Part shown: in pieces, positions 14,319 through 60,265 of the stretch
Layout of the letters: every line of letters begins with the position of its first letter
How positions within the stretch are numbered: position 1 is the stretch's first letter
Origin: Flavobacterium sp. LC2016-13
GTDB lineage: Bacteria > Bacteroidota > Bacteroidia > Flavobacteriales > Flavobacteriaceae
Direction: 5' to 3'
Assembly (NCBI RefSeq): GCF_009707955.1
Contig: NZ_WMDQ01000002.1
Span: 186,001-250,000, forward strand
Length of the DNA: 64,000 nucleotides
Position numbers and translations under genes: made by a program
The notes under the pieces: model-generated
What the model saw: only the letters and a program-made list of their open reading frames with translations
Database searches by the model: none
What the model was told of the DNA's origin: nothing

Positions 14319-14344
14319 AAATCATTTTTACTTTATTTTGTTTT

Positions 14345-14380
14345 ACAGCGTTTAGAAATTTTCTAAACGCTGTATTTTTT
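14345..14380 (+). terminator. Intrinsic terminator of the lipoprotein gene
   Basis: A perfect 13-bp stem ACAGCGTTTAGAA/TTCTAAACGCTGT with a 3-nt loop, followed by a T-run, 26 bp after the lipoprotein stop. Confidence 0.92.
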
Positions 14381-14385
14381 TATTT

Positions 14386-14426
14386 ATTCAAAAACTCCAA
14401 TTCTTCAATAATTTGCTTTTATTACG
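14386..14426 (-). pseudogene. Remnant duplicate of the 3' end of the AAA ATPase gene
   Basis: Read on the minus strand this gives KQIIEELEFLNK and a stop, against KQIIEELELLNR and a stop at the end of the intact ATPase gene (15496). A core of 35 bp matches at 34 positions (14386-14420 versus 15502-15536). Weaker similarity continues upstream and is out of frame through small deletions. The fragment lies on the far side of the Fic pair, so the pair is bracketed by two copies of this gene end. Confidence 0.75.
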
Positions 14427-14471
14427 GGTTGAATTTTATATTGATCATGTTAGACTTATTAAAGTATTTAA

Positions 14472-14479
14472 TACCTTTG
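14472..14479 (+). promoter_or_regulatory. -7 element of the Fic operon promoter
   Basis: TAccTTTG matches the Bacteroidota -7 consensus and ends only 4 bp before the ATG of the 70-residue gene at 14484, so the transcript would have almost no leader. The -33 element is weak (TTA at the expected distance). Confidence 0.5.
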
Positions 14480-14483
14480 CAAT

Positions 14484-14696
14484 ATGTTAGTTACTAGACA
14501 AGACATAATTGCATTAAGAAATTTATCAACGACAAAAGATCTTGTTGCTGTTGATACGATTCCGAGTACTTTTAAAAAAGATTTCCAGTTATTCTTCTTT
14601 GGAAAAACTTTTTTAAAAAAAGACAATGCTTTATTTGCATACCCTCACGATATTAAAAATTGGACACGTTTTATGTTTAATAAATATAACGGATAG
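14484..14696 (+). CDS. Small protein upstream of Fic, putative partner/antitoxin
   Basis: A 70-residue protein with a basic, helical N-terminal half (LVTRQDIIALRNLSTTKDLVA) and an aromatic C-terminal half (FFFGKTFLKKDNALFAYPHD, then WTRFMFNKY). I know no named family for it. It begins right after a promoter element and ends 5 bp before the fic ATG, so the two form a tight two-gene unit. This order is that of a small antitoxin ahead of a toxin. It lacks the Fic inhibitory motif, which lies in the Fic protein itself. An antitoxin role is inference. Confidence 0.6.
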   Translation: MLVTRQDIIALRNLSTTKDLVAVDTIPSTFKKDFQLFFFGKTFLKKDNALFAYPHDIKNWTRFMFNKYNG

Positions 14697-14701
14697 TATT
14701 T

Positions 14702-15487
14702 ATGCTTCCAGATTATTTAATAAACTTCAATACTGCACTTTTAAAATTTCAAGAAAAATTTCCCAGAGAAAATTGGTCAGAAGAATTTAAAGATTCTTTA
14801 ATCAATGATTATTCTTTTTATTCTGCCAGAGTTGAAGATTCTAAACTTCAATACGGTGATACTATTCGTTTTCTTAATAATGAAAGTGTACGCGGCATTA
14901 ATCTGGATTCATTGCTAGGTATTTCAGAACATCAATTAGTTTTAAAAAATCTTTTGCAAAACTTGGACAATTTTGAATTTACAGAAGAAACAATAAAGAA
15001 TGTACATGCTTCTTTAATGAGTTCTCCATTATCTTGGGAAACGGATTTTAAACTTGAGTTGGTTGGTAATTATCGTAATGTTCCCACAGTTGGATCCAGA
15101 GAGCCTTTTTTTGAAAATAAAGAGTACGCTCCTCATTACAATCTTGAAATAATTATGGCAAGTTATTTAAATCTGTTTAATTCCAGATTGAATGATATAG
15201 ATAATTTAGATTTCCAAAAACATTTACTAACAGGAATAGCTTACTTTCATAACAAATTTTTAAACGAGATTCATCCATTTGCAGATGGTAATGGCAGAGT
15301 TTGCAGAATAATGATTGGTGCTATCTTAATGTCACATAATTGTCCTCCAATTTTTCCTGAAATAAATAGTCAGGAACAACAAATTGAATACATATCAAAA
15401 ATTGTTCAATGTGAAAATGAAAAGAGCGATCTCCCTCTAATTGAGTATTTCGCAAATGGGATGACTCATTATCTAAATCGTATTTAA
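14702..15487 (+). CDS. Fic/DOC-family protein, probable AMPylating enzyme
   Basis: A 261-residue Fic protein with the complete catalytic motif HPFADGNGRVCR (191-202), so AMP-transfer chemistry should be intact. The beta-hairpin flap precedes it (GNYRNVPTVGSREPFF, 122-137). An N-terminal SARVED segment (41-46) fits the class II self-inhibitory motif SxxxE[G/N], with Asp in the last place, and Glu45 would cap the active site. No extra DNA-binding domain is present. The target protein is unknown. It is the second gene of a pair bracketed by copies of the AAA ATPase 3' end. Confidence 0.88.
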   Translation: MLPDYLINFNTALLKFQEKFPRENWSEEFKDSLINDYSFYSARVEDSKLQYGDTIRFLNNESVRGINLDSLLGISEHQLVLKNLLQNLDNFEFTEETIKNVHASLMSSPLSWETDFKLELVGNYRNVPTVGSREPFFENKEYAPHYNLEIIMASYLNLFNSRLNDIDNLDFQKHLLTGIAYFHNKFLNEIHPFADGNGRVCRIMIGAILMSHNCPPIFPEINSQEQQIEYISKIVQCENEKSDLPLIEYFANGMTHYLNRI

Positions 15488-15495
15488 TCTAGTTT

Positions 15496-16206
15496 TTACC
15501 GATTCAAAAGCTCCAATTCTTCAATAATTTGCTTTTTCATTATAGTATGAATATAATCTTTTGCCTCTGCATAAGAAATAGCATATTTACGTGGAATATT
15601 TTGTAAATGAGCCGGAAAAGTATTTAATATTTTATCATAATAAACGTCTAGTTCTTTTTCGTTTGGCATTTCAAATTTTAATCGTATTTGAAACCTTCTC
15701 AATAAAGCGATGTCAATACTGTGATAATGATTTGTGGCGCAAATAAGTAAGCTTTCATTGGGCAAATAATCAATCAATTGAATAATAGTGTTTACTAGAC
15801 GTCGCATTTCGCCAACATCTTTATCGTCGCTGTCACGGCTTTTTCCTATTTGGTCAAATTCATCTAAAAATAAAACTGCTTTTTCGCGAATTGCCTTGTC
15901 AAAAAGAGCTTTTATATTTTTGGAAGTTTCACCAATTCGGGCATTAATTAAAGTACTTAAATTGATGATTACAATATTTTTATCTAAAGCCGTTGCAATA
16001 GCTTTTGCAGTTGTTGTTTTGCCACAGCCGGAATGTCCGTGCAGTAAAATTTTATGATCTACTTTAAGATTGTACTTTTTTAATTCCTCAATATATTGAT
16101 GCTCTTTGATCGTTTGTGCTAAAGCAGATTTATTTTCATCACTAAAAAGCACATCACTCAATGCTATTTTTTCGGTATCGTTTACGGTAAGTTCGTACAG
16201 ATTCAT
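15496..16206 (-). CDS. AAA+ ATPase (single domain)
   Basis: A compact AAA+ protein of about 236 residues: Walker A HGHSGCGKTT, Walker B AVLFLDEFDQ, sensor 1 LLICATNH and arginine finger LLRRFQIR. It resembles the FtsH/SpoVK-like classical AAA group with no protease or N-domain. The ATG at 16206 (MNLYELTV) is used; an in-frame TTG at 16227 is possible. It is convergent with fic, 8 bp between stops. Such stand-alone AAA proteins in Bacteroidota are sometimes paired with a subtilisin-like protease, which is absent here. The substrate is unknown. Confidence 0.85.
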   Translation of the reverse strand: MNLYELTVNDTEKIALSDVLFSDENKSALAQTIKEHQYIEELKKYNLKVDHKILLHGHSGCGKTTTAKAIATALDKNIVIINLSTLINARIGETSKNIKALFDKAIREKAVLFLDEFDQIGKSRDSDDKDVGEMRRLVNTIIQLIDYLPNESLLICATNHYHSIDIALLRRFQIRLKFEMPNEKELDVYYDKILNTFPAHLQNIPRKYAISYAEAKDYIHTIMKKQIIEELELLNR

Positions 16207-59662: not shown

Positions 59663-60265
59663 TTTTTTTGCCACAGATAAAAAAGATTTTTGTTTCACGC
59701 AGATTTAAAAAGGATTTAAGCAAATACACGCAGATAATCGTTTAGCTTTATAAATTAAATCTGCTCTATCTACAAAATCTGCGAGAACATACTTTTACTT
59801 CGTGCCACAAATTTCACAGATTAAAAAGATTCTTGTTTCACGCAGATTTAAAAAAGATTTAAGCAAATACACGCAGATAATCGTTTAGCTTTATAAATTA
59901 AATCTGCTCTATCTGCAAAATCTGCGAGAATATACTTTTATTCATGCCACAGATGAAAAAGGATTAAACGATTTTTTTTCACGCAGATCTGGCAGATCTG
60001 GCAGATTTTTATTTAATTCCTGTTTTTTATGTAGTTTGTAATCCCTCGTTCCTTGGGATGACAAACTAAACGTGAATAAAAAATAATCATAGTATAAAAA
60101 TAATCAGCGTCAATCTGCTAAATCCTTTTAAAATCTGCGTGAAACAAAACTCCAGCATTTCATTAATTCAAGCGTAAATCAGAATGTGATCTACATCACG
60201 TAACCAATCTCCATACTCGCCGTTCCTTTGCCTTGTACTTTTAAACACAATTAAATACAATAAAA
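59663..60265. repeat. Tandem and inverted repeat region, 603 bp
   Basis: Three successive units start GCCACA at about 59670, 59804 and 59946, each with TTTCACGCAGAT; the first two are nearly identical over about 110 bp. The sequence near 60100-60147 is the inverse (complement of TGTTTCACGCAGATTTTAAAAGGATTTAGCA), so the block is flanked by inverted arms. No ORF of substance is inside. It has a CRP-like dyad (60185-60200) at its right end. Confidence 0.7.
60185..60200 (+). promoter_or_regulatory. CRP-like operator before the YceI operon
   Basis: TGTGATCTACATCACG, with the perfect inner dyad GTGAT-N4-ATCAC, matches the CRP consensus (TGTGA-N6-TCACA) at nine of ten positions. It lies 66 bp upstream of the yceI-family start. 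The Crp/Fnr gene is 0.5 kb away. Confidence 0.65.

What the first reader, a model, noticed from the sequence alone, without database searches (positions are those of the whole stretch)
14386..15545. Fic pair bracketed by a duplicated end of the neighbouring AAA ATPase gene
A decayed copy of the last codons of the ATPase (34 of 35 bp) lies before the Fic promoter, 1.1 kb from the intact end and in the same orientation. This looks like a scar of insertion: the pair arrived together with, or caused, a duplication of the gene end, so that the ATPase stayed intact. It marks a possible integration site for accessory genes at the 3' end of the gene, as seen with tRNA-like attachment sites.
Basis: seen in the sequence. 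Interest (0 to 1): 0.65.

Follow-up and report, generated by a model that had tools for sequence, protein, structure and literature searches.

The report
Fic pair inserted at gene end
A small toxin-like gene pair was inserted into the last codons of an ATPase gene in a Flavobacterium, duplicating about 35 bases so that the gene kept a complete end; it is a clear insertion scar of a kind already described for other compact gene pairs, and there is no sign of a dedicated integration site.

Summary
In detail: a 35-base direct repeat (34/35; 44 bases at 91%) of the AAA-ATPase 3' end flanks a 1.08-kb insert holding a 70-aa ORF and a Fic gene. Three of 80 fetched ATPase loci keep the same convergent neighbour (DUF3300-like gene). 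All three lack Fic and have one ATPase end. Removing the insert plus one copy in silico gives a complete ATPase beside the native terminator. So the pair was inserted about 35 bp inside the gene, and the duplication restored the gene end. No recombinase was recognised nearby, the insert has no inverted ends, 21 other Fic-pair loci (19 distinct) show no flanking repeat, and no other ATPase locus of the 80 holds the pair. Gene-end duplications without Fic occur at this ATPase in G042 (tandem) and at another gene in G187 and G057. Best reading: illegitimate insertion with long target duplication, reported for restriction-modification genes, here with a Fic pair as cargo. A tandem duplication before the insertion remains the main rival. 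Real, but of modest interest.

The parts
14386..14420 (-). Left copy: old (native) last codons of the ATPase, at the ancestral junction next to the DUF3300-like gene's terminator
   Evidence: 34/35 identical to 15502-15536; in relatives G344 and G390 the ATPase end lies at this position, at the terminator palindrome
15502..15536 (-). Right copy: last codons of the present ATPase
14421..15501 (+). Insert (1081 bp, G+C 28.9% versus 33.5% for the window)
   Evidence: absent from 3 of 3 synteny-matched relatives; composition (41 of 315 windows are as low, so not diagnostic)
14448..14483 (+). Leader with promoter-like TACCTTTG (14472-14479) before the ATG; conserved DNA of the pair starts here
   Evidence: DNA match to G030 begins at 14448; upstream sequences; the Bacteroidota -7 motif TAnnTTTG is recalled
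14484..14696 (+). 70-aa ORF, partner of Fic, no Pfam, NCBIfam, PADLOC or PHROGs match at E <= 0.001
   Evidence: beside Fic in 22 of 23 loci; alignment A1 of 15; AlphaFold2 mean pLDDT 93.2
14702..15487 (+). Fic protein with HPFADGNGR motif
   Evidence: Pfam PF02661 E 3.9e-10; motif invariant in 12 aligned proteins, own included
15496..16206 (-). AAA ATPase gene carrying the insertion near its 3' end (the ORF from a TTG start reaches 16227)
   Evidence: PF00004 E 3.8e-31; IetA models in PADLOC, best E 1.8e-58; below the NCBIfam cutoff for IteA, 174.8 against 510 bits
11949..14318 (+). DUF3300-like gene (name recalled; no Pfam or NCBIfam match), left neighbour that fixes the synteny
14344..14381 (.). 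Terminator palindrome and T run, shared by the two convergent genes before the insertion
   Evidence: read; same arrangement in L010 and L022

Best explanation
A two-gene Fic module (70-aa partner plus Fic), patchily present in Flavobacteriaceae and so presumably moved horizontally, was inserted into the 3' end of an AAA ATPase gene about 35 bp before its stop. The join duplicated about 35-44 bp of target, so the copy beside the ATPase still ends the reading frame while the other stayed with the old terminator as a dead remnant. The route was most likely a one-off illegitimate event (repair of a staggered break, template switching, or one-sided homology with donor DNA), i.e. insertion with long target duplication, not site-specific integration. 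Selection could explain why the duplication coincides with the gene end: insertions that truncate the gene would tend to be lost. Shown: insertion relative to syntenic relatives, duplication, which copy sits at the old junction, complete ATPase end. Inferred: the enzymatic route, the selection, horizontal movement (no tree was built), and that the pair acts like a toxin-antitoxin unit.
For: Repeat 34/35. 3 of 3 synteny-matched relatives among 80 fetched loci are empty with one gene end. In-silico removal gives an ATPase of the same length ending LEFLNK* followed by the native terminator. The Fic pair is patchy: 8 of 398 genus genomes, own and two broken ones included, 3 of 397 in the family draw, own included, 15 loci in the GTDB contig scan, two of them partial matches. 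The marker neighbours of this locus are absent from the other 22 loci within the stretches held. Conserved DNA spans just leader plus two genes (14448-15474 against G030). A similar gene-end scar without Fic exists at another gene in G187 (43 columns, 88%). Copies of gene 3' ends downstream: 5 raw hits of 727, against 0 of 727 and 0 of 695 for mid-gene segments.
Against: The nearest ATPase proteins are at most 88% identical, so the order of events is inferred. A prior tandem duplication, as in G042, with later Fic insertion would look alike. The weak similarity right of copy 1 (P 0.007-0.009) could mean a longer, older duplication. Of the 5 raw 3'-end hits one is read as a paralogue (L121) and two as tandem duplications (L110, L098), so only the own locus and L078 are insertion-like; the 5'-end control also gave 3 raw hits of 695. 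The pair's other loci show no duplication, so nothing ties the duplication to the pair.
Confidence: 0.66

Rival explanations
1. Two steps: the ATPase end was first tandem-duplicated by slippage, then the Fic pair entered the spacer without making any duplication.
For: G042 has such a tandem duplication of the same gene end (77 bp at 95%, unit 176 bp) and G216 a decayed one; the 21 other Fic-pair loci (19 distinct) have no flanking repeats; weak extra similarity right of copy 1.
Against: None of the 3 synteny-matched relatives has a second copy; left of the 35 nt the flanks match only at chance level, unlike G042 and L098, where intergenic DNA is repeated too.
Confidence: 0.2
2. Site-specific integration: the 35 bp are attL/attR of a mini-element whose integrase acts in trans or was lost.
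For: A direct repeat of a gene 3' end that restores the frame has the geometry of attachment sites.
Against: No recombinase recognised among the ORFs of window 8-22 kb; no inverted ends (638 of 1000 shuffles as good); the pair elsewhere lacks repeats; no other ATPase locus of 80 carries the pair; Fic relatives on plasmids (21 records) and phages (3 records) are all below 60% identity, and none was found in viral contigs.
Confidence: 0.08
3. Remnant of a decayed second ATPase gene in tandem.
For: An orphan decayed ATPase end exists in G052, so the gene does decay in the genus.
Against: Only 35-44 bp remain at 97-91% and similarity fades within about 30 nt on the gene-body side, whereas a decaying paralogue would fade over its whole length; the empty relatives have one gene.
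Confidence: 0.05

Closest known systems
Insertion with long (and variable) target duplication of restriction-modification genes (Nobusato et al. 2000; Furuta et al. 2010; known here only through passages of PMC1643837, PMC3031569, PMC3874152 and PMC4978471)
   Same: A compact gene unit inserted without a recognised mobile element, flanked by a long direct repeat; empty site in related genomes
   Different: Cargo is a Fic pair, not restriction-modification; duplication 35-44 bp where PMC3874152 says in the order of 100 bp; Flavobacterium rather than Helicobacter; a single instance
Integrative elements at gene 3' ends (tRNA or other gene-end attachment sites; recalled)
   Same: Direct repeat of the gene end restores the gene
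   Different: No recombinase seen, no reuse of the site, a single gene pair
Fic toxin-antitoxin modules (FicTA; papers seen only in the listing, class definitions recalled)
   Same: Small ORF directly upstream of a Fic gene with the HPFx[D/E]GN[G/K]R motif
   Different: The partner matches no family in four libraries; Fic itself carries an N-terminal S-[AS]-R-[VI]-E-D stretch resembling a built-in inhibitory motif (motif recalled)

Membership tests
Insertion with long target duplication | Cargo absent and a single target copy in related genomes | tested here: met
   3 of 3 synteny-matched relatives
Insertion with long target duplication | Long direct repeat of the target flanks the insert | tested here: met
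   35 nt at 97%, 44 nt at 91%; shorter than the order of 100 bp quoted in PMC3874152
Insertion with long target duplication | Seen repeatedly for the same kind of cargo | tested here: not met
   21 other Fic-pair loci (19 distinct) without flanking repeat; loss by decay in old insertions not excluded, so only the pattern, not a habit of the pair, is claimed
Site-specific integrative element | Integrase gene in or near the element | tested here: not met
   The insert holds only the two ORFs; the ORFs of window 8-22 kb were judged by reading, with Pfam run on six of them
Site-specific integrative element | Same site used in other genomes | tested here: not met
   0 of 80 ATPase loci carry the pair (three hold under 1.2 kb downstream); gene-end copies at E <= 1e-5 in 2 of 81 loci, own and the tandem duplication of G042
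Fic toxin-antitoxin module | Catalytic Fic motif HPFx[D/E]GN[G/K]R | tested here: met
   HPFADGNGR, invariant in 12 aligned proteins
Fic toxin-antitoxin module | Partner neutralises the toxin | not testable with these tools
   Needs expression assays; two genus genomes keep the small ORF beside a broken Fic, which is only suggestive

The most novel reading that the evidence does not exclude
Small toxin-antitoxin-like pairs in Flavobacterium can enter gene 3' ends by a general long-target-duplication process, as restriction-modification genes do, and the flanking repeat makes them precisely excisable with the host gene left complete.
Probability: 0.15. Interest if true: 0.45.

Novelty: new member of a known kind. 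Interest (0 to 1): 0.24.

Why it matters
It is a polarised example, with empty sites in relatives, of how a two-gene Fic module can enter a chromosome without a recognisable mobile element, extending to a Fic pair a pattern reported for restriction-modification genes. It shows how a gene can survive an insertion within its coding end. It also points to a well-conserved 70-aa Fic partner in Flavobacteriaceae and neighbouring groups that matches no family in the four libraries searched.

Tried and rejected
Rejected: attachment site (no recombinase recognised, no inverted ends, no reuse). Rejected: decayed tandem gene (short, nearly perfect, fading quickly). A possible decayed copy in L021 (G004) looked suggestive by eye, but neither the profile search at E <= 1 nor own-end BLAST at E <= 0.05 reported it, so it is not counted. 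Searches with the flanks of two other Fic loci (L042, L041; 111 genomes each) gave separate or multi-copy matches, and I saw no clean empty site for them. Fic in plasmids, phages and viral contigs: only matches below 60% identity, or none. Solved structures: Fic's best match is 3cuc, E 1.3e-7, then FICD entries; the partner's profile has one match at E 0.31. Fold search of the partner model: no Foldseek match at E <= 0.001; the best VIA-align row is a DNA-binding domain, 8csh_A, Z 5.0, rmsd 2.0 over 48 residues, too weak to name a fold. Literature: no held paper has 'target duplication', 'toxin-antitoxin' and 'Fic' together, and none has 'rep elements', 'flavobacterium', 'insertion' and 'direct repeats' together. 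PMC2853133 (Furuta 2010) is not held; the Nobusato 2000 paper was not looked up.

Rows dropped: of 126 ATPase matches outside the own genome I fetched 80 (from 79 genomes) and left out 46, those at about 52% identity or less. In one search, L034 and L040 were left out because they are the same records as L041 and L054, and L055 because it is a 32-residue match; L037 is the same record as L050, and L136 has the coordinates of L052, hence 19 distinct of 21. Fic alignment A2 leaves out L049 (stop codon) and L053-L055. The names MocR, MarR, DUF3300 and REP-like are recalled; no call gave them.

Full report
The window lies in a Flavobacterium genome: G030, listed as same genus, is identical over 3301 bases to the F. 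taihuense locus L041.

Observation. Two direct copies of the last codons of the AAA ATPase flank the small ORF and fic: 14386-14420 and 15502-15536, 34 of 35 identical, or 44 nt at 91%. No further copy exists in the genome at E <= 0.001. In the 64-kb window there are 10 direct-repeat families of 30 nt or more within 6 kb; two reach 90% identity, this one and a non-coding tandem repeat at 59672-59940. Beyond the 35 nt the left side matches at about chance level. The right side, with a 2-nt gap, is weakly above chance for 20-26 nt (P 0.007-0.009) and then fades.

Relatives. The ATPase is found at E <= 1e-60 in 126 of 398 genus genomes, own included. I fetched 80 of the 126 other matches. In 3 of 80 the DUF3300-like gene and its upstream neighbour lie convergent to the ATPase as here: G280, G344, G390. 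All three have one ATPase end and no Fic. In G344 and G390 the ATPase frame ends at or inside the shared terminator palindrome. In G280 about 260 bp with a palindromic repeat separate the two stop codons. The left copy therefore sits at the ancestral junction. A fourth relative, G243, with the closest DUF3300-like protein (86%), has no ATPase at this place and is uninformative. Joining the window's left flank through copy 1 to the base after copy 2 gives an ATPase of 234 residues counted from LYELTVND, as long as the present one, ending LEFLNK* rather than LELLNR*, with the terminator next to it.

Cargo. Fic (PF02661) with HPFADGNGR and the 70-aa ORF travel together: the small ORF was found beside Fic in 22 of 23 loci (not in L055, a 32-residue match) and in L136 and L137. 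Some of these loci are the same record fetched twice. Within the stretches held, only the own locus has the ATPase, DUF3300-like or isochorismatase neighbours. Conserved DNA begins in the leader (14448) and ends at the fic end (15474) in the match to G030. The pair is patchy: 8 of 398 genus genomes and 3 of 397 in the family draw, own included in each; named hosts include Winogradskyella, Kordia and Maribacter. No tree was built, so horizontal movement is inferred. In G056 most of fic is gone and in G270 it is interrupted, while the small ORF persists. The partner matches no family library at E <= 0.001. Its model is confident (mean pLDDT 93.2), with only weak resemblance to DNA-binding proteins.

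Is the duplication a property of the pair or of the site? Not visibly of the pair: among the 20 loci the own one scores 32 and the 19 others 8-13, like the shuffled controls (8-14); two more score 10. Old insertions may have lost their repeats by decay. Not clearly of the site: at E <= 1e-5 an ATPase-end copy occurs in 2 of 81 loci, own and G042. G042 is a 176-bp tandem duplication with a repeat palindrome and no cargo. G216 has a decayed copy (profile E 0.0045). First downstream neighbours form 28 clusters in 79 loci, upstream ones 22 in 81.

Controls. For mechanically called genes of at least 150 aa in the same loci, copies of the 3' end downstream: 5 of 727; of the 5' end upstream: 3 of 695; of mid-gene segments: 0 of 727 and 0 of 695. 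Of the five 3'-end hits, L121 reads as two paralogous genes in tandem, L098 (G057) and L110 (G042) as tandem duplications, and L078 (G187) and the own locus as insertion-like. In L078 no long ORF lies between the copies, only palindromic repeats, where six relatives have a 201-aa ORF on the other strand and no second copy. So such scars form without Fic, at low frequency. Of the three 5'-end hits I judge two to be repeat elements by their sequence; the third (L067) was not followed up. The small counts do not establish that 3' ends are preferred over 5' ends.

Mechanism. No inverted ends, no recombinase recognised among the ORFs of window 8-22 kb, and only distant or no Fic relatives in plasmid, phage and viral sets speak against an attachment site. 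The pattern fits insertion with long target duplication, described for restriction-modification genes (passages of PMC1643837, PMC3031569, PMC3874152 and PMC4978471). Which repair route made it is inference. A prior tandem duplication, as seen independently in G042, remains the main rival.

Noticed in passing
L110 (G042), downstream of the ATPase: The last 77 bp of the ATPase plus an intergenic palindrome are tandemly duplicated (unit 176 bp, gene part 95%) without any cargo.
   Followed up: yes
L078 (G187), about 585-624 bp after the stop of the gene at 205-1617: A decayed copy (43 columns, 88%) of that gene's end lies at the far side of a stretch of palindromic repeats, where relatives have a 201-aa ORF and no copy; same scar type at another gene.
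   Followed up: partly
L054/L040 (G056) and L039 (G270): Fic is mostly deleted or interrupted while the 70-aa partner ORF is kept, as expected if the partner is an antitoxin.
   Followed up: no
L159 (G243), after 3860: Beside the closest DUF3300-like gene, the ATPase and isochorismatase are absent; the sequence runs from the terminator into what reads as a shortened hydrolase gene.
   Followed up: partly
L157 (G052), about 1500-1687: Decayed fragment of the ATPase 3' end; this genome has no ATPase match at E <= 1e-60.
   Followed up: no
window 59672-59940: Non-coding 126-nt repeat, two copies at 96%, 143 bp apart, REP-like.
   Followed up: no
window 15496-16206: The ATPase resembles IetA models (PADLOC best E 1.8e-58) but is far below the NCBIfam cutoff for the defence ATPase; no defence role shown.
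   Followed up: no
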